Of a DNA stretch of 23,710 bases, positions 5,007-21,020 are shown in pieces (positions within the stretch are counted from its first letter, which is position 1; every line of letters starts with the position of its first letter). The stretch covers positions 1 through 23,710 of the IMG/VR virus record IMGVR_UViG_3300003885_000728. One strand, written 5' to 3'. Source of the DNA: a virus. The position numbers and the translations under genes were made by a program. The notes under the pieces were generated by a model. It searched no databases. It saw only the letters and a program-made list of their open reading frames with translations, and was not told the DNA's origin.

Positions 5007-6607
5007 TGGGACGCTGGTGGCAAAAGGCGCTGGTGTTCGCGGCCGAATCGGCTTACAAGGCCGCTCGCGTCACTCGCACTAATAGCACGTGGCAACCGAC
5101 TCTCGGGAGTGGTGAGGAGCAGCTACGCGCCGCGGCTGACCTCATGATGGCCCGCGCGCGGGACCTATCGATCAACTCACCAGCCGCCAAACGGATCGCC
5201 GACACGTTGGCGGATCTGATGATCGGAAGAGGTCTTCAGAGCTATGCCGTACCGTTCACCGATGATCTGATTCAGCTGATGTACAGCGAGGCACCGTTGC
5301 GTGACCGCATCATGCTGGACCTCGAATATAGTCTCGAATCAGATGCATTTTTCGAACAGTGGTGCGAGCACGCCGATGCGGACGGCGACAACACATGGCA
5401 TGAGCTAGAACGGATGGCATGCTATGAACTCGTCAATGCAGGTAACGCCATCTTGTTGCGGTGTGACATTGCAGACCCTGAACGGCCGATCTCACTCTGT
5501 TATCAGCTCATTGAGCGGGACCAACTGGATACCATGCAGGATCGGCCAGCGTCGACTGGCGAAAACAAGATTCTAAACGGGATCGAATACGATGGGCGAA
5601 ATCGCAAGGTTGCATATTGGATCCACGATTCCCACCCATCGAGCACGTATGACTATCGCGTGTCGGGCGGCAGTTCTCGCATCCCCGCCAACCGGATTAT
5701 CCACGCCTACCTGCGTTTCAGGCCGAGTCAACGGAGTGGATACCCGTGGGCACAAGAGGCTTATCAGGCGATCCGTGATTGCGATTGGTACCTCGGGTCC
5801 GAGCTGACGTCCGCCGCCATCCAGTCGATCTTGACGTTCATCCATAAGTCACCTAACCACCGAAATCTAACAGGCCTGGAGGATGGGCTCGACAGTGAGG
5901 ACGAGTACGGTAATTCACTGCTCAAACTTGGGGCCGGGGTGGTGTTTCGTGGCGGGCTGGATGACGAGCTCGAAATAGCAGAAAGCAAGCGACCCAGCCG
6001 GGACGCGGCGCCGTTCATCCAGCAGATCCGCGTCGAGGAGGGCATGGGGGCCGGCATTTCGCCCGTCCGGCTGACTCGCGACTACCGCACACACAGCTAC
6101 ACGTCCGCCAGAGCCGCCCACCTGGACGACGACGCCCACATCAAGCCACTTCAGGAGTTTTTCTCGCAGCGTATTTCGCTTCCGATTCGGCGCGCGGTCA
6201 ATCGTGAAGCCGCCGCGCAGGGAAAACTAGCCAGCGTGACGCCTCGGCAGTTCCGGGCCGACCTGGCGCGGTACCAGAAATTCGAGATCCTCGGTCCGGG
6301 GCGAGAGCAACTCGATCCGGAGAAGGAGACCGAGGCATCGATTAGCAAACTGCGGGCCGGTATATCGAACCTGCAGATGGAAAACGGCCGTCGCCAACAG
6401 CATTGGGTGCGGGTCCTGCTGCAGCGCGCAATCGAAGACCAGGTCGCGGGCGCGCTAGGCGTGACGCTCGATTTCTCGAAGGGCGGCGGAAACGTCCACC
6501 ACGGGGCTGGCATCGAGAGCGCCCCATCGAAGAGCGAAATTGGCGCGGATGATGGAACCGACGACGGCCAGGACGCAACGGAGCAACAGGATGCCGACGA
6601 AGCATGA
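5006..6607 (+). CDS. Portal protein, lambda gpB family
   Basis: The product has 533 residues, the same size as lambda gpB. It forms the ring at one head vertex through which the terminase pumps DNA and to which the neck attaches. Visible family features are the ARARDLSINSPAAKRI helix with GRG after it (residues 49-76), the NGIEYDGRNRKVAYWI strand pair (191-206), and RIPANRIIHAYLRFRPSQRSGYPW (225-248 in part), the 'iiH.y...R..Q.rG.pw' signature of this portal family. A middle stretch DAAPFIQQIRVEEGMGAGISP precedes the C-terminal crown. The last 25 residues are acidic and low in complexity. The ATG overlaps the upstream stop (TAATG), and the gene end overlaps the capsid polyprotein start by 17 bases. 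Confidence 0.93.
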   Translation: MGRWWQKALVFAAESAYKAARVTRTNSTWQPTLGSGEEQLRAAADLMMARARDLSINSPAAKRIADTLADLMIGRGLQSYAVPFTDDLIQLMYSEAPLRDRIMLDLEYSLESDAFFEQWCEHADADGDNTWHELERMACYELVNAGNAILLRCDIADPERPISLCYQLIERDQLDTMQDRPASTGENKILNGIEYDGRNRKVAYWIHDSHPSSTYDYRVSGGSSRIPANRIIHAYLRFRPSQRSGYPWAQEAYQAIRDCDWYLGSELTSAAIQSILTFIHKSPNHRNLTGLEDGLDSEDEYGNSLLKLGAGVVFRGGLDDELEIAESKRPSRDAAPFIQQIRVEEGMGAGISPVRLTRDYRTHSYTSARAAHLDDDAHIKPLQEFFSQRISLPIRRAVNREAAAQGKLASVTPRQFRADLARYQKFEILGPGREQLDPEKETEASISKLRAGISNLQMENGRRQQHWVRVLLQRAIEDQVAGALGVTLDFSKGGGNVHHGAGIESAPSKSEIGADDGTDDGQDATEQQDADEA

Positions 6608-9194
6608 TCACCGCAGCCGGCGCGTCGTTGCAACATGCCTCGACGAGGTATGGGCGATCGATCCGTTTAAGCTCGAACAAATCTGCGGATTCCTCGACCT
6701 CCGGGCCAGCGGCTACACCCCGACGGCCGACGAGGTGCAGGTGGTGTTGGCAAGAGATGGACGAGTCGACGATCAGGACGATGAGCCAGAGATCGTGGAT
6801 GGGGTCGTGCAGTTAGGCTTGTTTGGCGTTATGGCGCCACGAATGAACATGCTGACTCAGATAAGTGGTGGGACGTCGACACAGCAATTTGCCGCTCAAC
6901 TGCGGCAGGCCGGCGAAAATGAAGCGATAAGGACCGTGGTGGTGGAGGTGGATTCGCCCGGTGGTGTCGTGACCGGGACGGAAGAGCTGCGGCGTGCGAT
7001 GGTATCGCTGGCGGCGAGGAAGCGAGTCGTAGCGATCGCGCGTGGCATGATGACCTCAGCGGCCTATTATGCGTCGGCCGGCGCGACCGAGTTGGTCGCG
7101 ACACCATCAAGCCAAGTAGGGAGCATCGGGGTATATGCAATTCATCGCGAGATCACCAAGGCGGCCGAGGACGCGGGGGTAAAGTTTCGCGTCTTTCGTG
7201 CAGGTGAATACAAAGCAGCCGGAATCGAAGTCGAGAAACTAACAGAGACGTTTGCCTCAGTTTTACAGGAGCGGATCGAGGAGCCATATCGGCAATTCGT
7301 CGCGGCAGTTGCGGTCGACCGATCCGTCACGACGGAGGCGGTCGAGAATCGTTTCGGTCAGGGCCGGACCTTCCTGGCCGCGCCCGCGAGAGAGCGTGGC
7401 ATGATCGATGAAGTGCTGGGCTTCGACGAACTGATTTCTCGCGAACGACAATCCGCGAGAGGTCCGATCACAAAAGTTGGACTGTCGGTGGTTGGGGATG
7501 CCAAGCCACCGGAACAGGTCTTGGGACACGATAGTTCTGGGCGGTGGATATTTTACGACCCAAACGATAAGCCGCGACATGCGGCCGAAACGAAGGAGGA
7601 AAAGGTAATGCACGAAAAAGTAAAAGCCGCATTGGTGGCAAAAGGGCTGGTAAGGGGCGATGCATCTAATGACCAAAGTGAGGCAGTCCTGTCGGCAGCG
7701 TTTCGCGCACGAGGTGAAAATGTACCGAATGAGCCTGACGACATCGTGAAGGCGATGTTTGGATGGGACGCGATCAAGGCGCCGGAGCCAGCCAAGATTC
7801 CAGAGAAGGCGCCAGTGCCGGCACAAAGTGGACCAGACGAGGCGGCCGTTCGGCTCCAGGAGCGAAACCGAATCGCGGACCTGCGGGCTCGTGGCAGCTT
7901 GCTGGAGGCGTCCGACGAGGACATCGCGACCGCGATCGATGGGGGACTGTCGTCCGAACAGGCGTGCAGCCAGTGGATCGCCGCCAAGCTGAAGGCCAAC
8001 AAGCCCGTGGCGAGCCGGATCGAGACGGGCGAGTCGGAGTACGACCAATCCTTCACTGCTGCGGCGGCAGTGTTGGCACAGCGATGCCAGATCGAGACCG
8101 AGATGCCGCCGCATGCTCGCGACATGGCCAACATGTCGTTGCTTGATATCGGTCGACGGTTTGTCAAGCTCAGTGGTGGCCGGCCGAATGGTGACCAGGA
8201 GGCGGATGCGCTCGAGTTCCTCAAGCTCGGCGGAACAGATCGCAAAATGTTCGCTTCCGAGGCGTACGCGGCCGGGCCGGCGTTCAACCGTCCAGGTGAT
8301 TTTCCGAATCTCCTGAGCGCCCTGGCGGGCAAGATCCTCGATACGTCGTTCGACCTCGCGGAGGTGACGTACCCGGACTGGTGTGCCCGGATGGGCGATG
8401 CGGCGGACTTTAAGCCCAGGACCATTATCGCGGCCGGCGTGTTCGACGATTTGGATCTCATCATGGATGACGAGGATCCCAAATCGCTTGCCCTGACGGA
8501 AGAGTTGATGCAGTGGATCTCGGTCGATCGTTATGCCAACAAGGTCGGGCTCACGCCCGTCATGGTGGCGAATGATGACCTGGATGCCTTCAGCACTCAA
8601 CTGCAGTCGCTGGCGTTCGCGCACGAGAGTAAGATCAACACGCTGGCGGTCCAGACGGTGGCCAACAATCCAACCATGCCGGACACAAAGGCGTTATTCC
8701 TCGGCGAAACGGCCGATCATTACAACCTCGTGGCTTCGGGAGCTGCGGTGTCGAGCAGTGCGTTGTCGACCATGCGGCTGCGCCACAGGTTGCAGCCTGG
8801 AGTCGGGACGACTAAGAAAAAGATCAAGAGCCCGCCGAAGATCTGTCTTGTGCCGCCCGGAAGCGAAGAGGCCGCCATCCAGGCCCTTGCGCCGCTAATC
8901 CAGTTGGAGCAAAAGGCTCCCGCGACCGACGCGACGATCAACACCGTGCGGGGCCAGATGCGGCCCATCGTGGAAAATGAGTTCGCCGATTATGACACGG
9001 CTGCGTGGTATACGCTTGCGGATCCGAACGTGCGACGCACGATCGTGTACTCATTCATGCGAGGCTACGGACGTGGTGGACAGCGTGAGACGTGGTTTGA
9101 GAACGGGCGCAAGACTCGGTACGTCGCGCTCGAGGGTAGGTTTGCGGTCGTGGCTGCAAGTTGGCGCGGGATTGTAAAGAATCCCGGTGCCTAA
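6591..9194 (+). CDS. S49-type prohead protease / scaffold / major capsid protein fusion
   Basis: This 867-residue protein combines three head functions. I chose ATG 6591 because a GGAGCAACAGG sequence precedes it; the frame is open further upstream only as overlap with the portal gene. Residues about 70-290 form an S49 (SppA/gpC-like) protease: VEVDSPGGVVTGT, the nucleophile Ser156 in ARGMMTSAAYYAS, SSQVGSIGVY, and the base Lys208 in FRAGEYKAAG. The Ser-Lys spacing of 52 is the same as lambda gpC (Ser166, Lys218). Residues about 340-480 look like a scaffold: charged and helical, with ERNRIADLRARG and a 'AIDGGLSSEQAC' turn. Residues about 560-867 form the capsid subunit, with VMVANDDLDAF, KINTLAVQTVANNP and KICLVPPGSEEAAIQAL typical of HK97-fold gpT-like shells. 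A strong internal start at 7608 probably makes scaffold-capsid separately. Related fusions are known in other phages. Confidence 0.9.
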   Translation: MPTKHDHRSRRVVATCLDEVWAIDPFKLEQICGFLDLRASGYTPTADEVQVVLARDGRVDDQDDEPEIVDGVVQLGLFGVMAPRMNMLTQISGGTSTQQFAAQLRQAGENEAIRTVVVEVDSPGGVVTGTEELRRAMVSLAARKRVVAIARGMMTSAAYYASAGATELVATPSSQVGSIGVYAIHREITKAAEDAGVKFRVFRAGEYKAAGIEVEKLTETFASVLQERIEEPYRQFVAAVAVDRSVTTEAVENRFGQGRTFLAAPARERGMIDEVLGFDELISRERQSARGPITKVGLSVVGDAKPPEQVLGHDSSGRWIFYDPNDKPRHAAETKEEKVMHEKVKAALVAKGLVRGDASNDQSEAVLSAAFRARGENVPNEPDDIVKAMFGWDAIKAPEPAKIPEKAPVPAQSGPDEAAVRLQERNRIADLRARGSLLEASDEDIATAIDGGLSSEQACSQWIAAKLKANKPVASRIETGESEYDQSFTAAAAVLAQRCQIETEMPPHARDMANMSLLDIGRRFVKLSGGRPNGDQEADALEFLKLGGTDRKMFASEAYAAGPAFNRPGDFPNLLSALAGKILDTSFDLAEVTYPDWCARMGDAADFKPRTIIAAGVFDDLDLIMDDEDPKSLALTEELMQWISVDRYANKVGLTPVMVANDDLDAFSTQLQSLAFAHESKINTLAVQTVANNPTMPDTKALFLGETADHYNLVASGAAVSSSALSTMRLRHRLQPGVGTTKKKIKSPPKICLVPPGSEEAAIQALAPLIQLEQKAPATDATINTVRGQMRPIVENEFADYDTAAWYTLADPNVRRTIVYSFMRGYGRGGQRETWFENGRKTRYVALEGRFAVVAASWRGIVKNPGA
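7593..7610 (+). promoter_or_regulatory. Strong internal ribosome binding site and in-frame ATG (nested scaffold-capsid start)
   Basis: AAGGAGG at 7593-7599 stands 8 bases before an ATG at 7608 that is in frame with the capsid polyprotein (Met340). This is one of the best Shine-Dalgarno sequences in the window and lies exactly at the protease/scaffold boundary. Initiation here would give a 528-residue scaffold-capsid product (7608-9194) without protease, allowing many shell subunits per protease copy. The arrangement parallels the nested C/Nu3 genes of lambda. Confidence 0.65.
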
Positions 9195-11470: not shown

Positions 11471-12403
11471 ATGACTACATTTTTCTTTCCTCACGCGATC
11501 GATTTTGCGGATGGGGACCTGTTGACACAACTCACTAACGTCTCGCCTGCATATAACTTCCAGGACCTTGCTGAGTTTTCATCTGGTGACACGTCTCCCA
11601 TGTGGTCCGGTTCGCTCAGCAGCGCGCCGAACGTCGCATTTTCGACTCGTCAGGTAAAGAGCATACTGGACCTTTGCGATCCGCTGGCCGCACATGGCAA
11701 CGGAAAGGTGATCGCCTACGATGCGGCGACGGGCGGCAAGATAACGGTCTGGCTCCGGAAGGGTGAGGCATATGGGCTGCGAGAAAGTAACGCATCGGTG
11801 GTGCACGAACAGGTAGTTATCCAGAAGGGGTTTTTGCAATGGTCTGACATTTCCGCTCAGCAGAATCAGGTAGCGGAATTATCATGCCAGTTGGTTGCGT
11901 CCTACGATGGCGTGAATGATCCGCTGGTGTTCTCACAATCCGCTTTAGCCGGTTCTCAAGCAGTGAATCACCTTTTTACACTGGGGCCGATCCATCTTAA
12001 CGGCGCGGCGCTGGCAGGACTGCAGGGCTACACTTTGTCCAACAATGCCGGCCTCAATGTAGTGTTTGACTCGGGCGTCCCGTTTCCACAATATATTGGT
12101 ATCGTGTCATTCTCACCCACACTGGTTGCTAGGGTTCGGTATGCGGACTACATGCGCACAATCGGGACACGCGGCACCGCCATCACGGCGCTCAATGTAT
12201 ACCTCCGCCGACTGGCCGCCTCCGCCTTGGCGGTCGCGGACGGGACGGCACAACATATCAAGTTTGCCTCAACCGCTGGTACCGTGAAGGCCAGGCAGGT
12301 GGACAACACGGGTCTAGTGGACCTGTTCTTCCAACTCCTGAAACCAAACACCACCACACAGCCTTATGTCTGGACTGTCGACACCACCATTCCGGCAATT
12401 TGA
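11471..12403 (+). CDS. Probable major tail (tube) protein
   Basis: The product has 310 residues. GAGG at 11460-11463 lies 7 bases before the ATG. It sits where lambda V is found: after the neck genes and before the chaperone and tape measure. The sequence is beta-rich with few charges: DLAEFSSGDTSPMWSGSLSS, then GKITVWLRKGEAYGLRES, a VVIQKGFLQWSDIS strand pair, QVAELSCQLVASYDG, and a second half rich in small residues (VRYADYMRTIGTRGTAITALNVYLRR). The pattern of paired strands with internal glycine turns fits a tube subunit, perhaps with two related domains. No sequence signature was recognised, so the function is inferred from gene order. Confidence 0.5.
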   Translation: MTTFFFPHAIDFADGDLLTQLTNVSPAYNFQDLAEFSSGDTSPMWSGSLSSAPNVAFSTRQVKSILDLCDPLAAHGNGKVIAYDAATGGKITVWLRKGEAYGLRESNASVVHEQVVIQKGFLQWSDISAQQNQVAELSCQLVASYDGVNDPLVFSQSALAGSQAVNHLFTLGPIHLNGAALAGLQGYTLSNNAGLNVVFDSGVPFPQYIGIVSFSPTLVARVRYADYMRTIGTRGTAITALNVYLRRLAASALAVADGTAQHIKFASTAGTVKARQVDNTGLVDLFFQLLKPNTTTQPYVWTVDTTIPAI

Positions 12404-12415
12404 TTGGATCATAGC

Positions 12416-13240
12416 ATGGCGGTTATCAAGTATTTCGTCCCTGGCTTATCCAAAGACAGGCTCGTCGATGATGACGGCAAGGTATCTGCGGCCTTGCTGC
12501 GAGAACTTGGTTTGGCGGAATCGCTACGAGATATCACCAATATACCCCGTGACGCCACCCTAACGGGCGTCCAGCATGGCCCCGGTGGTGCGGACGGCAT
12601 CCTCATGACTCCTACTCAGATTGCCCCCAAGTCGGAGCCGAATTACTGTTACGAGGCGGCATCGCAATTGTGGATCGAGAGCCTTGATGGTAACTATTGG
12701 CTCGGCACGGAGTCGAATGAGCCCATCATGCCGGCCGATCTACAGCGCCGAAAAATGTACCTCGGGTATAACGTCGAGGCCGATGATGGAATGTCGTGGA
12801 TGATTCCAATTGCCCGATCGGAAGACACCAGCCGTGTGACGCTGCCGCAGGACATCTATTTCGTGGAGGGCCTGGCGACTAAGAGCCTCCGAAAACAGTA
12901 CCGGCATTTGCTTGATATTGCGGATAAGGTCCTGGATTGGACGTCGGGTGAAGAGTCCGATGCAAGCGACGAGACGTGGCGAATTGATCACGCCCTCGTT
13001 GCGATGAACGTTAACTATCGTCTCTGGCGCGATGAAATCAATTTATCGCGAGAGGCGGGGCGCTCTATATTATCATCGCCATTGGTTGAGCCGATTTGTC
13101 TTTCGCTGGCGGACATCCAGTTCGCGGTCGAATTCAAAAAAAAAGACTCATCGGAGAATGGCCTAAGAGTGCGAGATTTAGACGATTCCTCCAATGGTAC
13201 CGGGGACGGATTCAGCATCACCCCAGTTGGGGTGAACTGA
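12416..13240 (+). CDS. Tail assembly chaperone, short form (lambda G-like)
   Basis: The product has 274 residues from ATG 12416; a TTG at 12404 is possible but less likely. It is immediately upstream of the tape measure gene, the fixed place of the tail assembly chaperone. The protein is acidic and mixed helical: KYFVPGLSKDRLVDDDGKV, a middle stretch EPNYCYEAASQLWIES, helices KSLRKQYRHLLDIADKVLDW and WRIDHALVAMNVNYRLWRDE, and SLADIQFAVEFKKKD near the end. Nine consecutive adenines at 13136-13144 encode the KKK, about 100 bases before the stop. A -1 slip there gives a longer form. These two forms would bind the tape measure and recruit tube subunits. It is longer than lambda G (140 residues). 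Confidence 0.6.
   Translation: MAVIKYFVPGLSKDRLVDDDGKVSAALLRELGLAESLRDITNIPRDATLTGVQHGPGGADGILMTPTQIAPKSEPNYCYEAASQLWIESLDGNYWLGTESNEPIMPADLQRRKMYLGYNVEADDGMSWMIPIARSEDTSRVTLPQDIYFVEGLATKSLRKQYRHLLDIADKVLDWTSGEESDASDETWRIDHALVAMNVNYRLWRDEINLSREAGRSILSSPLVEPICLSLADIQFAVEFKKKDSSENGLRVRDLDDSSNGTGDGFSITPVGVN
13136..13144 (+). other. Putative -1 frameshift slip site (A9)
   Basis: The zero-frame codons are TTC AAA AAA AAA GAC, so the run contains the slippery heptamer A-AAA-AAA followed by G. After a one-base backward slip the next codon is AGA at 13144, and the frame stays open to 13335. An imperfect stem (13153-13159 with 13185-13192, one bulge) begins 8 bases downstream, where stimulatory structures usually lie. 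Confidence 0.6.
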
Positions 13241-13335
13241 TCGTTTGTGAGTTGATGCACGCGGAAGAAGAATCGCGATGGCAAAAGTCACACAGACATG
13301 GACTGGAGATGCTAGCAAGCTCACTGCGGAGCTAG
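13144..13335 (+). CDS. T-like frameshift extension of the tail chaperone (GT form)
   Basis: This -1 frame has no ribosome binding site or good start of its own and is reached by slipping on the A9 run. It adds 63 residues to the first 243 of the chaperone, giving a form of about 306 residues. The extension begins RLIGEWPKSARFRRFLQWYR and continues with HHPSWGELIVCELMHAEEESRW. This is rich in aromatic and helical residues and resembles the 'W..Y...eP.Ge...d...A' pattern of minor tail T proteins, whereas the zero frame over the same bases is a low-complexity, Ser/Asp/Gly-rich tail. It ends 58 bases inside the tape measure gene. In lambda the equivalent GT form binds the tape measure and tube subunits during assembly. 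Confidence 0.55.
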   Translation, partial: RLIGEWPKSARFRRFLQWYRGRIQHHPSWGELIVCELMHAEEESRWQKSHRHGLEMLASSLRS

Positions 13336-14774
13336 ATAAGGTCAACCGCGCGCTGGCCAAGAACGAGGAAAAACTACAAAACCTAATCAACAAATCCTCA
13401 AAATCCGGGAAGGCAAGCGAGGAGCAGGCCAGGTCGATGAGTCGTCACGCCGGCGGGGCGGCGTTGAGCCTACAGAGCATGGCGACCGCCTGGTTGAGTG
13501 TCGGTACCGCGATCGGTCTCGCGAACAACTTCCTGCAGAAGCAACGTGAGATCCAGGAAAAGAGTCTCGACCTGAACCTCCAACTGGCCATTCAGCAACA
13601 GTCTCTCCTCCTAAATACGGGCACATCTTTTCAGTCCTCAATTCCGCAGATCAACGCCATCCAGAAACGGACCAATGCGGACATTAACGCCCTGACGTCG
13701 GGTGCAAGTTTTGCCGTATCGGCAAAGGGACAGCTCAGCACCGGCGAGGCCTTCGGAGCTCTTGAAGCCGCGGCCCGCATGGTGCCCAACACGCCGGAAG
13801 CCATCCCCGAATTTACGCAGGTTGCGCTGCAGATCATGAACGCCGCGGGGCCGGGCGAACTTACGGCCCAGCAGGCACTTGGTTTCGCCCAATCGGCCGC
13901 CACGGTGGCGGCCACGCCGGAAGCGCAGCAGTTTTTTACCAGCGTCGCGCCCGTGGCGTTCTCAGGCGCGATCCAGGATCCGACAAATCGGAAACGTGGC
14001 ATGCTCCAGTCCGCGGCCTTGATGACTATGCTGACTGGCCGGGGTGATCCCGGAGCCCTCTTGTCCGCAACCGCCACGGCAAACTTTGTTCCGCGGCTTG
14101 GTGCATTTTTCAAGTCACGCGGCGGGGATGTTCCGGAATCATTATTTGGCAGAATCGAGGCCATGCAGCAAGACCCGGCCCTAAGGGAAGAGTTTCTGGA
14201 GTCGGGCGGCATGAAAGGCAGACTTCCCGCTAGGTTGCGCACCCAGGTGAAAAACGTATTGACCGCCGGGACGGCGGAAGCAGAGCAAATGCTCGCGATC
14301 GCGGGCAAGATCGGGTTCGAAGCCGCTCCATACGAGGAGCGGGTTGCCCAGATCGAAAATGCGACGCCCGCACTCGCGATCGCCGCTCGCGAGCGCGCCT
14401 CACTGTCGGCGGAGCAAAGATACCAGGTCGAAACACCCTCGCTGGGAGCAGCCGGGGCGGCAAGGCGCGCGGTTGAGCGTGGACTCGGCACCGCGACAGG
14501 AATTGGCGGGTTTCTGCAATCGTGGGGTCTCCAAAAAGCCTACAACTGGTACGAGGGCCCCATGGACCCGATTGGCGGCGGCACTACCGTGCTTACCAGA
14601 CGTCGGCGCGGGCTTGAATTGGGCGGGATCCAACCGGACGAAGTGGGGCAACTTAAGGTTATTGACGAACAGCTTCAGGTGCTAAAAGACTTGCGCGATA
14701 TCGCGGCCCAGAGCCAGGGCCAGGCCGTTACGGGCGCGGCGAATGAGCAACCATTGAGGCATGCTGAAAACTAA
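13278..14774 (+). CDS. Tail tape measure protein (short)
   Basis: The product has 498 residues. GGAAGAAGAA lies just upstream of the ATG. The opening KVTQTWTGDASKLTAELDKV matches the start of many tape measure proteins ('.....GD.skl...l..v'), and is followed by a coiled coil (ALAKNEEKLQNLINKSSK), a hydrophobic stretch about residues 59-86 (GGAALSLQSMATAWLSVG onward), and a long Ala/Gln-rich helical body with no beta domain. Charged helix ends with LKVIDEQLQVLKDLRDIAAQ. The location after the G/GT-type chaperone supports the call. At about 0.15 nm per residue it would set a tail of roughly 75 nm, shorter than lambda's. No peptidase or lysozyme domain is visible. Confidence 0.75.
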   Translation: MAKVTQTWTGDASKLTAELDKVNRALAKNEEKLQNLINKSSKSGKASEEQARSMSRHAGGAALSLQSMATAWLSVGTAIGLANNFLQKQREIQEKSLDLNLQLAIQQQSLLLNTGTSFQSSIPQINAIQKRTNADINALTSGASFAVSAKGQLSTGEAFGALEAAARMVPNTPEAIPEFTQVALQIMNAAGPGELTAQQALGFAQSAATVAATPEAQQFFTSVAPVAFSGAIQDPTNRKRGMLQSAALMTMLTGRGDPGALLSATATANFVPRLGAFFKSRGGDVPESLFGRIEAMQQDPALREEFLESGGMKGRLPARLRTQVKNVLTAGTAEAEQMLAIAGKIGFEAAPYEERVAQIENATPALAIAARERASLSAEQRYQVETPSLGAAGAARRAVERGLGTATGIGGFLQSWGLQKAYNWYEGPMDPIGGGTTVLTRRRRGLELGGIQPDEVGQLKVIDEQLQVLKDLRDIAAQSQGQAVTGAANEQPLRHAEN

Positions 14775-15693: not shown

Positions 15694-17811
15694 GTGACCA
15701 CCACTCTCGATTTCGCGAACCCGTTCGGCTCACAGCCCTACCCGCTTACGATCGACGTCTATTTCAAGGATTTGTGGCAGGACGAATGGAAATTACAGTC
15801 CGATGTTGGGGTTGACCGTGTCGTATGGTCGAGTTCGCCGCGTATTGGTATCGCCCAGCTCTACTGGCGATATGGTTTTGGCAAACAGCCATCGGACTCG
15901 TGGTTACAGCAAATATCACGTAAATCGATCCAACGTTGGCACGTCAAACTAGATGTTCAAACGACATCACTTACGATTCCCGGAACCACAACGTCAAAAT
16001 TGTGGTACGGCCAGATCGAGATCCACCAAGACATTATCGACGGCGAGGTACAGGTTGAATCAGGGCGGCAGGCCTTCATTGCTTACTCGATGGAAAGCAC
16101 CCTTTTCAAATACCCGATCCTGCACTCACTCATTGCGAATAACGCAAGATGGTACGACGCAGGCCTGGAATTCAACCGTGACGGAAAGGGAAATCGGACA
16201 GATATAAACGCAAACGTCGGTTTTCCAACATTTTCGGTTGCCGCGACCGCTCCCTATTGGTCGAGCCGCGATATTGTGAGGTATATTGCGGGAACCAATT
16301 CGGTAGATCTTGACCCAACCGGCATAACCTACTTACCGACGTGGGACCGTCCTACCGTCTCGATACACGGACGGAAGCCAGGTCAGATCCTCAACGCCGT
16401 CATGGCGCGTCAACGTCTACTCGGGTGGCGTGTTGACGTCGTCGAAGGTAGTAGCATCGATAGGATCAAGATCGTACCGTTTACTTTTGCCGAATCATCG
16501 ATTGTACTGAGTGGCGGCAATGAGATGAAGAAAAATCCATCAACCTACCACTTGAACCTACACAATGCGGCCGATGCAATCGTTGATGTTCGTTTCGATA
16601 AGTCCGGCACCTACAACCAGGTCGTGGTCGAGGGAGCCAACAGGCGATCTGTTTTTACCGTATCGGACAGCGACAATACATTGGCTGGTGGCTGGACCAG
16701 TGATCAAAAAGCCAATTACGACACAGGGGCGAGCGGCGATGCCAGCTACCCTGCAGCACCGCAGGTAGATGAGCGCCGACGCCGTAACATCGATGCACGC
16801 GCTACGGATGATCTACTGGACGTCTACAGTCGGTTTCAGCTTCCATTCTTATGGGATTTCAAATCCGCCGATGGACAGGGTGGTACGAAGTATCCGGCTT
16901 TTCTTGAGCAGAAGGACCAGAATGTAGCGGACGATTTTGGCGATGGGATAGATCTGTACTGGCCTACCATCTCGATCGAGCCCACCATTCCCCTACTGGC
17001 GAATGTCGATTACGCATCAGGCTTTACTGCCCCCGCGAGCGGAGACAAAGCTACGGAGTTGGCGCCGATTTGTCTGATCGAACTGCCGGAGGATTCAGGC
17101 CGATTTGTGACGATCGAAAATGCCGGCATGGCTTCCGATCTGCCGACGACCGATACAACAACCAATAAGCGATGGTCCGCATCATTGGCAGTCAGTTCGC
17201 GAGAGCGAGAGCCTGCGTTTTACATCCGCGTCAAAGGACAGCCCCAGCATACGATCGCGAGCGCCGACTTTGTTCCGTTGCCAGAGGATCGCGACCTCGG
17301 ATCGTTCAACTGGCGCGACATGGTCACGACAATCTCGATTCGTGAGGATCGGCGCTGCATGGCAAAGTGGCCGCCGGATGCCATCGCCTTCAATCGTTTT
17401 GATCTCCGGCGGCGGCTCCTAATAGATGCTGGCAAATCCTACCGGCTCGACTACATGCCGGCCGGGACGGTGTTGGGGATCGATCCGCAGACGGGCGGCC
17501 TCGTGAAGGCGCCAAACCATACGTGGGTGAATGACGACCGCGACAAGCTGCGCGACATCGCCGAGGTGGCGTACCAGTGGTATGGGAAGGAGCGACGGTC
17601 GCTGAAGCTCAAAACGAAACGGATCATCATGGAACTCGGAGTAGGGGATCTGATCGTGTCAGTATCGCGCACATCGGCCGTTGATGTTGCCGTTGGAACA
17701 ATCGTGACCGAGGTGGCGATCGATAATCCGTTGTCGGGGTCGGAACAGCCACGCAACGCCACGATGTCGATCACAACTGCCTTTGCCCAACTGGACCCGC
17801 TGAAGCTATGA
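15694..17811 (+). CDS. Large tail hub / tip protein
   Basis: The product has 705 residues from GTG 15694, three bases after the previous stop; an earlier in-frame start is not available without overlap. It is the first large protein after the tape measure. The N-terminal third has strands and a Trp-rich region (DRVVWSSSPRIGIAQLYWRYGFG), then an interface-like YGQIEIHQDIIDGE. The middle contains KPGQILNAVMARQRLLGWRV, typical of the domain in hub proteins that resembles phage T4 gp27. The C-terminus (KLRDIAEVAYQWYGKERRS, then IIMELGVGDLIVSV and ITTAFAQLDP) again fits hub proteins. It would join tube to fibre. The hub identity is inferred from order and pattern. Confidence 0.6.
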   Translation: MTTTLDFANPFGSQPYPLTIDVYFKDLWQDEWKLQSDVGVDRVVWSSSPRIGIAQLYWRYGFGKQPSDSWLQQISRKSIQRWHVKLDVQTTSLTIPGTTTSKLWYGQIEIHQDIIDGEVQVESGRQAFIAYSMESTLFKYPILHSLIANNARWYDAGLEFNRDGKGNRTDINANVGFPTFSVAATAPYWSSRDIVRYIAGTNSVDLDPTGITYLPTWDRPTVSIHGRKPGQILNAVMARQRLLGWRVDVVEGSSIDRIKIVPFTFAESSIVLSGGNEMKKNPSTYHLNLHNAADAIVDVRFDKSGTYNQVVVEGANRRSVFTVSDSDNTLAGGWTSDQKANYDTGASGDASYPAAPQVDERRRRNIDARATDDLLDVYSRFQLPFLWDFKSADGQGGTKYPAFLEQKDQNVADDFGDGIDLYWPTISIEPTIPLLANVDYASGFTAPASGDKATELAPICLIELPEDSGRFVTIENAGMASDLPTTDTTTNKRWSASLAVSSREREPAFYIRVKGQPQHTIASADFVPLPEDRDLGSFNWRDMVTTISIREDRRCMAKWPPDAIAFNRFDLRRRLLIDAGKSYRLDYMPAGTVLGIDPQTGGLVKAPNHTWVNDDRDKLRDIAEVAYQWYGKERRSLKLKTKRIIMELGVGDLIVSVSRTSAVDVAVGTIVTEVAIDNPLSGSEQPRNATMSITTAFAQLDPLKL

Positions 17812-20800
17812 CGGGCGGAACCATCCCACTGTCGATCGAGCGGCGACTACAGGCGCTGGAGCACGAAAACGAACAGCTCCGCAAAGTCGTGGACCAGCTC
17901 GGGCGTCGCGATGCCGCGCTCGACATGCAGCGTCAGCTGTGGATCGCCAAGACGGCCGCCGTGTCGTCATATCCGTCAGATCCGGCCGATACGTTCGGCA
18001 TCATTTTTCAAGACGGTGAGTACGCCCGCACGGAAGGGAGCCCGAGCCCAACCTATGGCGATCGTTCGCTCGCGCCTCTCGAATGGGCCAAGTCGATTGC
18101 GGGGAATTATTACGCCGAGGGTACGTACGTTGTCGTGATGGAGGAGGATCGACAGTATTGGATCATCGATGCGGCGGCGGCCAGCAGTACCGATAAATAT
18201 GTCAAGATTAGCGCGGACGAACCGACCGGCACGCCGTCAATCGGTCAATATCTTGAAGACCAATTCGATAGCCACAGCGCAACGGAGGATTTCAATTCCG
18301 CGACCGATGTCCAGATGTCGACCGACACCAAGTATACCGGCACGCCCCCGACCCATACTGACGAACATATCAGAGTGTATTGGTCGACCGATGCGGTCGC
18401 ATGTTACACACCTGGCGCGACTGAGCTCTTGATCCACAACGGAGCCCAGGGTGATGAACCACAGTGGGCCACCATCTCGCCTGAGGAGACCCCCACAGAA
18501 TCGAATAGCGACCGTGATTTCTTCATCAATTTTCAGTGGGACACGGTCGCGGCAACGTGCAAACAACTGCGAGGATTCATTGACGCGACGGATTCAAACT
18601 ACTACTCCGGTAACGACATCCAGATGTGGGGACATCGAGACGCCGACGCACAATGGAGCTGGTACAAGTGGGGCTTGACCGGTACCTATAGCGGATCGGG
18701 AGACTACATCGCGCGAGTCGACCAGGTATCGGTCGCGGGTGACTTTGACATCTACCTCGCTCCCGCCGACATGGTCAATGGCCCCTATGCGGCCGGGTCG
18801 GATCAGCTGTTAGGACACGACGTCAGTGGGTTTTTCAAGTGGTTTGCGAAAACGAGCGTTACCAACACTGACTATCGTGTCGCCATCAACTCAGCCGACA
18901 TGGCGGGTGACCTAGGGGGTTACCTCGACACCAAACTGGACAACAGCGGCGGGACGTACGTCGCGACTGATGACCTTGTGATTCCATGGCACCTTACTAA
19001 CGCCGCGACCGCATCGCAAAAAGTCGAATACTTCATCGACGCATCGGCTCAGACGGGCGGCGATAGCTGGACCATCTCAGACATCCAGGTGCTAGGCCAT
19101 GGTATCACTGGTGCGTGGGGTTGGTACGATCCCGGGAAGACGAAGGTTAGCTCGACCGACGCGCTCGCCTACCTAGAGAGCCAGTTCACCGACACCGGAA
19201 CCTACGCGGCCGCGAGCGACTTCCCGCTGCGGATCGATAGCGCGGGCAACACCCTCAAGCTATTCGCCAGACCGTCGGATGAGACAACGGGATGGTCGAC
19301 CGGAACGGATCAGATCCTAGGACATGACACTCTCGATCAATTCACCTGGTTTGCCAAATCGAGCGGGGCTGACACGGATTATCGATTCACCATCAACGCC
19401 GAGTCGGACCCGGGCGGGACATGGACTACCAAGATAGTGGGGGAGGACGTCTACCTATCCACCGAGGATCTGCAAATAGATTGGGACGAAACACCCATCG
19501 GAAAGGCGACTCTATTTCTTGATGCTAGTGCCCAGACGGCAGGCGACACACATTCCACTGCAGTAATTCAAGTCCTCGGCCACGGCGTGACGGGCGCGTG
19601 GGGCTGGTACGATCCCTGCCTGGTTAAACTCGACTCGGGCGACTCGTGCGGCCTGCTGGAATCCAAGTTGGACAACCTAGGTGTTAAAAATGGGACCGAG
19701 GATCTGGTGATCAATTGGCGCAAGTCGACCGGTCCGCTGGTCGACAACTTTGTCGACGCCAGCGCGATCGCCAACTGGGCGACGGTGTCGGGTCGCAAAT
19801 ATCTCACACACTATGGCGGTCAATGGACCTGGGCCCAGGAACCGACCGGCGGTGGCGGGACCGACACGGATTATCGCTTCGAAATCAACTCGGCTGATGC
19901 TGCCCCAGGCCGTTGGGACACGAAGGTTAATGGATACAAAACACTTGCATCGGTTGATCTGAACATCAATTGGGATGAGTCACCAGCCGACAAGGCGACG
20001 CTGTTTGTGGACGCGTCCGCCATCGTTGGATTCGCCGGCGGCGGACGCCGATACCTTACCCACAGCGGCACCATTTGGCAGTGGGTCGACGAACCGGCTG
20101 GCGGGACCGACACGGATTACCGATTCGCTATTACGGCGGCGGACGGGTTCCCAGGTCGGTGGGATACCAAGGTCCAGAATGAGGCAGTCTATGTCGCGGT
20201 TGAGGATTTGGCGATTCGCTGGGACGAAACACCCTCGGGTGCCGCCACATTGTTTATTGATGCATCCCTCATCACGGGCTTTGCCGGCAGTTCGCCGCGA
20301 TATCTCGTACACCAAAATGGTCAGTTCGAATGGGTAAACGAACCGGCCATGATCAACACGGATTCCCGATTTACCATCAACGCCGAGTCAGAACCGGGCG
20401 GGACCTGGAAACAAAAGATTGTGGGGGAGGACGTCTACATCGACTCGGAGGACTTGCCGATCGACTGGGACGAGACACCAGCTGGCCAGGCCACGATGTT
20501 TATCGACGCCGACGCTATCGGTGGGTTTTTGCTGAGCGGTCGCAAGTACCTGACCCACACCGGGCTTATCTGGGAATGGGTGCAGGAACCTACCGGTGGC
20601 GGCGGGACACCCGATACCTGCTTGGTGTTAATGAATTCCTCTATGACGGACTGCCAGTATCTGGACGGATTGTTTAACTCAACCGACCGTGACAATTCCT
20701 ACGCCAGCACAGCTGATCTCAAGATTGATTGGTACATTACCGGATCCGGTAATGCGCAGCAGATCCGCCACTACATTGATGCGGACGGTGATATCGTTGG

Positions 20801-21020
20801 ATATGTATCGTCCGACCAATCGCTAGGCCACGACAGCAATGGGATCTGGACATGGAAAAACCTGGAGCGAGTCGCACCCATCACATCCATCCGGGTGAAT
20901 GAGGCCACCAATCCGCCACAGTTCGAATATAAGACGACAGGATTCAAGGTCGTGGATCTGGAAGCCGAATCGGCCTGGATTCCATGGCATGTCGGTGACA
21001 AATGCCTCACGGGGCCATGA
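17808..21020 (+). CDS. Repeat-built tail fibre protein
   Basis: The product has 1070 residues and starts in an ATGA overlap with the hub gene. Residues about 9-45 (SIERRLQALEHENEQLRKVV) form a coiled coil suited to a trimeric fibre attachment. From about residue 130 to 1018 the chain is made of roughly eleven diverged units of 60-90 residues. The best conserved parts are YRF-INxxxxxxGxW, a W-D-E-T-P turn, (F/Y)-(V/I/L)-DASA, and either LGHxxxGxWxWY or RYLTHxGxxWxWV with an EP-(T/A)-GG linker. The C-terminal 50 residues (ITSIRVNEATNPPQFEYKT onward) differ and may be the tip. It is the best candidate for host contact. No peptidase, hydrolase or chaperone motif is seen. Confidence 0.7.
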   Translation: MTGGTIPLSIERRLQALEHENEQLRKVVDQLGRRDAALDMQRQLWIAKTAAVSSYPSDPADTFGIIFQDGEYARTEGSPSPTYGDRSLAPLEWAKSIAGNYYAEGTYVVVMEEDRQYWIIDAAAASSTDKYVKISADEPTGTPSIGQYLEDQFDSHSATEDFNSATDVQMSTDTKYTGTPPTHTDEHIRVYWSTDAVACYTPGATELLIHNGAQGDEPQWATISPEETPTESNSDRDFFINFQWDTVAATCKQLRGFIDATDSNYYSGNDIQMWGHRDADAQWSWYKWGLTGTYSGSGDYIARVDQVSVAGDFDIYLAPADMVNGPYAAGSDQLLGHDVSGFFKWFAKTSVTNTDYRVAINSADMAGDLGGYLDTKLDNSGGTYVATDDLVIPWHLTNAATASQKVEYFIDASAQTGGDSWTISDIQVLGHGITGAWGWYDPGKTKVSSTDALAYLESQFTDTGTYAAASDFPLRIDSAGNTLKLFARPSDETTGWSTGTDQILGHDTLDQFTWFAKSSGADTDYRFTINAESDPGGTWTTKIVGEDVYLSTEDLQIDWDETPIGKATLFLDASAQTAGDTHSTAVIQVLGHGVTGAWGWYDPCLVKLDSGDSCGLLESKLDNLGVKNGTEDLVINWRKSTGPLVDNFVDASAIANWATVSGRKYLTHYGGQWTWAQEPTGGGGTDTDYRFEINSADAAPGRWDTKVNGYKTLASVDLNINWDESPADKATLFVDASAIVGFAGGGRRYLTHSGTIWQWVDEPAGGTDTDYRFAITAADGFPGRWDTKVQNEAVYVAVEDLAIRWDETPSGAATLFIDASLITGFAGSSPRYLVHQNGQFEWVNEPAMINTDSRFTINAESEPGGTWKQKIVGEDVYIDSEDLPIDWDETPAGQATMFIDADAIGGFLLSGRKYLTHTGLIWEWVQEPTGGGGTPDTCLVLMNSSMTDCQYLDGLFNSTDRDNSYASTADLKIDWYITGSGNAQQIRHYIDADGDIVGYVSSDQSLGHDSNGIWTWKNLERVAPITSIRVNEATNPPQFEYKTTGFKVVDLEAESAWIPWHVGDKCLTGP
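18195..20855 (+). repeat. Tandem diverged protein repeats in the fibre gene
   Basis: About eleven in-frame units occur. The closest pair at DNA level begins near 19373 and near 20357: both encode a TINAES-(D/E)-PGGTW and IVGEDVY core with a downstream WDETP, and share most bases over about 120 positions. The other units are more diverged. Units alternate between a GH-G-W-WY ending and a YLTH-W-WV ending. Confidence 0.7.

What the first reader, a model, noticed from the sequence alone, without database searches (positions are those of the whole stretch)
13096..13335. Hidden -1 frameshift makes a G/GT-type tail chaperone
Seen: the gene just before the tape measure contains AAA AAA AAA G in the zero frame, and the -1 frame is open from there to 13335 with no start of its own. 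The -1 frame encodes an aromatic, helix-like segment (GEWPKSARFRRFLQWYR, PSWGELIVCELMHAEEE) while the zero frame over the same bases is low in complexity. An imperfect stem starts 8 bases after the slip site. Known: lambda and many siphoviruses make a tail chaperone and its extended form this way at this gene position. Inference: the long form here has about 306 residues. A short-gene annotation would miss it.
Basis: partly seen in the sequence, partly recalled or inferred. Interest (0 to 1): 0.65.

Follow-up and report, generated by a model that had tools for sequence, protein, structure and literature searches.

The report
Frameshifted tail chaperone, conserved nine-A slip
In this phage of (probably) Planctomycetes, the gene before the tail-ruler gene makes a second, longer protein by slipping one base at a run of nine As, and about thirty relatives keep a run of exactly nine As at that spot, which suggests that run length is selected and that the RNA-copying enzyme, not only the ribosome, may do the slipping.

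Summary
Gene 12416-13240 holds TTC AAA AAA AAA GAC (A9, 13136-13144), and the -1 frame runs from there to a TAG at 13333-13335, giving a 243+63 = 306 residue long form. The -1 frame is the selected one: against close relatives, substitutions after the run fall on the -1 wobble position (3/15/7 by zero-frame codon position, against 24/11/40 upstream), and -1 identity is 24/31 against 14/31 for the zero-frame tail. Distant relatives, including planctomycete prophages, keep a homologous -1 extension (leave-clade-out profile: 26 of 28). The fold's best viral match is a tail assembly chaperone, and a tape-measure-like gene follows. So the G/GT-type reading is supported. The claimed stem is not significant, and the -1 ORF does contain a TTG.

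New here: the family is absent from Pfam, PHROGs and NCBIfam. In 30 of 36 A-run members the run is exactly nine, in all three codon registers, with at least 11 register changes on a tree. That favours slippage by RNA polymerase. Other members use canonical ribosomal heptamers (G GGA AAC, A AAA AAA) at the same place, so purely ribosomal frameshifting remains a close rival. No expression data exist.

The parts
12416..13240 (+). short form of the tail assembly chaperone (zero frame, 274 aa; ATG 12416, TGA 13238-13240)
   Evidence: homologues start MA..YF; AlphaFold model of residues 1-240 pLDDT 92
13136..13144 (+). slip site: run of nine A, register AAA AAA AAA G; contains the in-frame heptamer A_AAA_AAA
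   Evidence: exactly nine in 30 of 36 A-run homologues
13144..13335 (+). -1 frame extension, 63 aa (RLIGEW...SSLRS) plus TAG; long form 243+63 = 306 aa
   Evidence: conserved in L013, L112 and beyond; two helices predicted
13145..13240 (+). zero-frame tail of the short form (31 aa), overlapping the -1 extension; largely unconstrained
   Evidence: substitutions concentrate on zero-frame position 2, the -1 wobble position
13278..14774 (+). putative tape measure protein (498 aa); its start overlaps the last 58 nt of the extension
   Evidence: the same gene in the homologue L197 matches a tape-measure PHROG at E 3.6e-4; inference from position and coiled N-terminus
11471..12403 (+). putative tail tube protein upstream
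   Evidence: weak Pfam Phage_tube_2 match E 0.015, below cut-off; homologues sit in the same place in L002, L004, L008, L009

Best explanation
The gene is a G/GT-type tail assembly chaperone gene. Most expression gives the 274-residue short form; a minority gives a 306-residue form in which the last 31 residues are replaced by a 63-residue -1-frame extension (helix, W-x-x-G...P-S/T motif, long helix). By analogy with lambda gpG/gpGT, the common part would coat the tape measure protein and the extension would recruit tail tube subunits; this functional step is inferred. Shown here by sequence: the extension is a selected coding sequence, homologous across the family, reached by a -1 shift at the A9. 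Inferred: the slip most likely comes from RNA polymerase adding one A at the nine-A run (about 0.55, alone or together with ribosomal slipping at A_AAA_AAA); slipping by the ribosome alone is the close rival (about 0.4). The confidence given is for the programmed long-form chaperone, whichever machine slips.
For: Codon-position test: differences by zero-frame position upstream 24/11/40 and after the run 3/15/7 for window against L013, with the same pattern for L112; -1 identity 24/31 against zero 14/31; 0 of 5000 simulations reach it. Leave-clade-out extension profile hits the -1 frame in 26 of 28 A-run members and the +1 frame in L221; the other frames do not score. Homologues in planctomycete genomes, including Planctomycetes bacterium Pan216. 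Run of exactly nine in 30 of 36 (registers 0/1/2: 10/15/5), with 4 A8, 1 A10, 1 A7. At least 11 register changes on the tree. Excess over the ribosomal minimum length differs by register (p about 1e-5). Chaperone-like fold hit. Literature: runs of 9 A or T give high-efficiency RNA polymerase slippage, and Thermus dnaX uses it (PMC5009743).
Against: No RNA or protein data. No match to any known chaperone family by sequence. The fold match is modest (E 6.5e-3) and PDB gave none. Against RNA polymerase slippage: all but one homologue shift -1, and one-directional shifting was taken to mean ribosomal in PMC3711429; sister lineages use G GGA AAC or A7 at the same place; downstream structure and SD-like motifs are enriched across the family relative to control windows (z -0.73 against 0.11, p 0.002; 11 of 29 against 11%); every -1 run, even the A7 and A8 ones, contains an in-frame A_AAA_AAA; all-member run length varies slightly with register (p 0.04).
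Confidence: 0.92

Rival explanations
1. Same two products, but the shift is made only by the ribosome: tandem tRNA-Lys slip at A_AAA_AAA inside the A9, as in lambda-type phages.
For: All experimentally studied tail chaperones discussed in the papers read use ribosomal shifting (PMC5009743, PMC3711429). Homologues L220, L246, L248, L250 have canonical G GGA AAC, L199 G GGA AAA and L245 A AAA AAA C at the same position. Direction is -1 in all A-run members but L221. Family-wide downstream structure and SD-like enrichment.
Against: A ribosomal site needs only 7, 8 or 9 As in registers 2, 1 and 0, yet lengths pile up at 9 in every register, through at least 11 register changes. The window's own downstream region has no significant structure.
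Confidence: 0.4
2. The -1 segment is a separate small protein started at the TTG at 13096 or another internal start.
For: A TTG opens the mechanical -1 ORF at 13096.
Against: Homology of the extension begins at the A-run; upstream of it in close relatives the zero frame is the constrained one; no shared internal start was seen in homologues.
Confidence: 0.03
3. Chance overlap, assembly error or decayed gene; no programmed long form.
For: Homopolymers are error-prone; L221 has A8 and the extension in +1, as a one-base loss would give.
Against: The same site and frame recur in dozens of independent assemblies, with selection on the -1 frame.
Confidence: 0.02

Closest known systems
Phage lambda gpG/gpGT and HK97-type tail assembly chaperones
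   Same: Position before a tape-measure gene, -1 extended form, extension overlapping the next gene; some homologues even use G GGA AAC, close to the lambda site (lambda site from my own knowledge)
   Different: No sequence similarity found; the short form is larger (about 240-residue alpha/beta domain); the slip site is usually exactly nine As rather than a heptamer
Thermus thermophilus dnaX and Shigella mxiE/spa genes (transcriptional slippage at A/T runs)
   Same: A run of nine or more A/T used to make an extended or truncated product (PMC5009743)
   Different: Not phage tail genes; slippage was shown there experimentally and is only inferred here
Citrobacter rodentium tssM1 (A11, polymerase slippage, both forms needed)
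   Same: Two forms in a set ratio from a poly-A run; its authors compare it with gpG/gpGT (PMC4256274)
   Different: One bacterial T6SS gene, A11; not a conserved phage family

Membership tests
G/GT-type frameshifted tail assembly chaperone (works like) | gene lies between tail tube and tape measure genes | tested here: met
   Order tube-like, chaperone, tape-measure-like in window, L009 and L004; the tube and tape-measure calls are themselves weak
G/GT-type frameshifted tail assembly chaperone (works like) | slip site near the 3' end and an open, selected -1 extension | tested here: met
G/GT-type frameshifted tail assembly chaperone (works like) | both proteins made in a fixed ratio and needed for tails | not testable with these tools
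   needs mass spectrometry and genetics
Known chaperone families in Pfam, PHROGs or NCBIfam | sequence match to a family model | tested here: not met
   no credible match for 22 members in Pfam or PHROGs, nor for 4 family proteins in NCBIfam
Known tail assembly chaperones by fold | structural similarity | tested here: inconclusive
   BFVD top hit 'Tail assembly chaperone' A0A6J5LCU1 E 6.5e-3, prob 1.00, TMt 0.50; PDB nothing significant
Canonical ribosomal -1 site | X_XXY_YYZ heptamer in the zero frame | tested here: met
   A_AAA_AAA at 13138-13144
Canonical ribosomal -1 site | downstream structure or upstream SD-like stimulator | tested here: inconclusive
   not significant in the window; enriched across the family
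Transcriptional slippage site | homopolymer long enough (about 9 A/T), length conserved independent of codon register | tested here: met
Transcriptional slippage site | heterogeneous run length in mRNA | not testable with these tools
   no transcript data
Transcriptional slippage site | orthologues shift in both directions | tested here: inconclusive
   only L221 has the extension in +1, possibly decay or a sequencing error

The most novel reading that the evidence does not exclude
In a large family of planctomycete phages the ratio of short to long tail chaperone is set by RNA polymerase stuttering at a run held at exactly nine As, with some lineages switching to ribosomal slip sites at the same position.
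Probability: 0.5. Interest if true: 0.72.

Novelty: new variant of a known kind. Interest (0 to 1): 0.52.

Why it matters
It adds an apparently undescribed chaperone family to the G/GT frameshift principle and extends it to Planctomycetes prophages. It also offers a natural comparison of ribosomal against transcriptional slippage on one homologous site: the same gene uses A9, A7-A8, G GGA AAC or a GC-rich site in different lineages. If RNA polymerase is the slipping machine, a virion assembly ratio would be set during transcription, which the papers searched do not report for tail chaperones. Short-gene annotation would miss the extension in all these genomes.

Tried and rejected
Single-protein searches for close relatives in viral contigs and phage records found none. 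Pfam, PHROGs and NCBIfam matches for the chaperone are at chance level. PDB fold search: only weak ferredoxin-like PII partial matches, Z about 2. The claimed stem: not significant in the window; the hairpin at the zero-frame stop was not tested in the relatives. The first genome-contig scan gave nothing. A literature search for transcriptional slippage together with tail chaperones gave no report of it. An independent-start reading of the -1 ORF was rejected.

Full report
What is there. The window is a 23.7 kb IMG/VR virus record with a gpA-type terminase, a lambda-family portal, a fused S49 protease-capsid gene and a tail module. Gene 12416-13240 (274 aa) carries AAA AAA AAA G at 13136-13145 in the zero frame. 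The -1 frame runs to TAG 13333-13335, overlapping the next gene (13278) by 58 nt. The -1 ORF mechanically starts at a TTG at 13096, so 'no start of its own' is not exact. The downstream stem is not better than shuffles (z +0.36; -0.70).

Is it more than chance. Relatives were found through the terminase and then through the chaperone itself. Close relatives L013 and L112 (54-62% identical) have the A9, the same zero-frame stop position and a matching extension. Upstream of the run, differences from L013 fall 24/11/40 on zero-frame codon positions 1/2/3. In the 31 codons after it they fall 3/15/7, so the free position is the wobble position of the -1 frame. The -1 proteins agree at 24/31 and the zero-frame tails at 14/31. 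Random synonymous recoding of the zero-frame proteins never reached this in 5000 draws, while the zero-frame identity is mostly what the -1 frame would give by itself. So after the run the -1 frame is the selected one.

Across the family, extension profiles built without the tested clade hit the -1 frame in 26 of 28 A-run members, down to 20-30% identical homologues, and the other two frames essentially never; the two misses (L203, L205) are among the most divergent. The shared pattern is W-x-x-G-(5-8)-P-S/T-x-x-(D/E). In L221 the extension lies in the +1 frame after an A8.

What it is. The family has no credible match in Pfam, PHROGs or NCBIfam. The AlphaFold model of the 240-residue domain is confident (pLDDT 92). 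Its best viral match is an annotated tail assembly chaperone (E 6.5e-3, prob 1.00); nothing significant in PDB. The extension is predicted as two helices (pLDDT 80). A roughly 440-500 residue tape-measure-like gene follows in A-run members, one of which matches a tape-measure PHROG. Members occur as prophages in Planctomycetes (Pan216) and in 12 of 392 and 30 of 397 sampled planctomycete genomes; the weakest hits of the latter are doubtful. A planctomycete host for the window is inferred from this.

How it slips. In 36 A-run members the run is 9 in 30, 8 in four, 10 in one and 7 in one. No other A or T run of 9 exists in 175 kb of the first 29 loci. The run lies in all three codon registers; register changes at least 11 times on the tree while length changes 6 times. 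A ribosomal heptamer A_AAA_AAA needs 9, 8 or 7 As in registers 0, 1 and 2. Length measured against that minimum differs strongly between registers (p about 1e-5), whereas length itself hardly does (p 0.04; 0.48 without L227 and L245, which belong to the clade that uses G GGA AAC). These p values ignore shared ancestry. Selection on total length is what RNA polymerase slippage predicts: runs of nine A/T slip efficiently in bacteria, mostly adding As (PMC5009743), and one added A gives the -1 frame.

Against this, a sister clade has G GGA AAC (L220, L246, L248, L250) and A_AAA_AAA_C with only seven As (L245), and L199 has G GGA AAA: sites that only a ribosome would be expected to use. A GC-rich clade (L014, L016, L022, L023, L026) has no A-run but a nearly invariant block with a perfect 7-bp stem 5 nt after CCU. 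Downstream structure, upstream structure and SD-like motifs are all modestly enriched family-wide against control windows of the same genes. The same gene may thus use either machine in different lineages, as reported for dnaX (PMC3711429). I put polymerase slippage as the main or a joint source at about 0.55 for A9 members, purely ribosomal at about 0.4.

Some deeper members have no recognisable extension (L207, L218, L224, L226, L228, L239, L240), so the long form is not universal.

Novelty. The principle (gpG/gpGT) is known. The family, its host group and the constant nine-A site are not described in the papers searched, and no report of transcriptional slippage in a tail chaperone was found; subscription papers were not searchable.

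Noticed in passing
window 6606-9194: One ORF fuses an S49-type head protease (PF01343) to a capsid protein (PF25209); homologues L002, L008 and L009 align across both parts in one piece.
   Followed up: partly
L014:5676-5830, L016, L022, L023, L026: GC-rich clade: no A-run; a nearly invariant block ACCCTCCCGAGGCGGCC(NNNGC)GGCCGCCTGA with a perfect 7-bp stem precedes the zero-frame stop, and the -1 extension is conserved. Slip site not settled.
   Followed up: partly
L221 (reverse strand), run near the end of the zero-frame ORF: Run of eight As with the homologous extension in the +1 frame: a direction switch, or a one-base loss or sequencing error.
   Followed up: no
L220, L246, L248, L250, L245, L199: Canonical heptamers G GGA AAC, A AAA AAA or G GGA AAA replace the A9 at the homologous position.
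   Followed up: partly
L207, L218, L224, L226, L228, L239, L240: Homologues with neither an A-run nor a recognisable extension; several form one clade. Loss, or a state before the extension existed?
   Followed up: no
window 17808-21020: 1070-residue protein downstream of the tail genes with diverged internal repeats (154, 87, 75 and 24 nt units), tail-fibre-like by position.
   Followed up: no
window 13218-13235: Perfect 7-bp hairpin TCACCCC-agtt-GGGGTGA just before the zero-frame stop; conservation in relatives not tested.
   Followed up: no
G009 (Planctomycetes bacterium Pan216), loci L195 and L196: Two separate family members in one genome, both with A9 and a -1 extension: two prophages or prophage remnants.
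   Followed up: no
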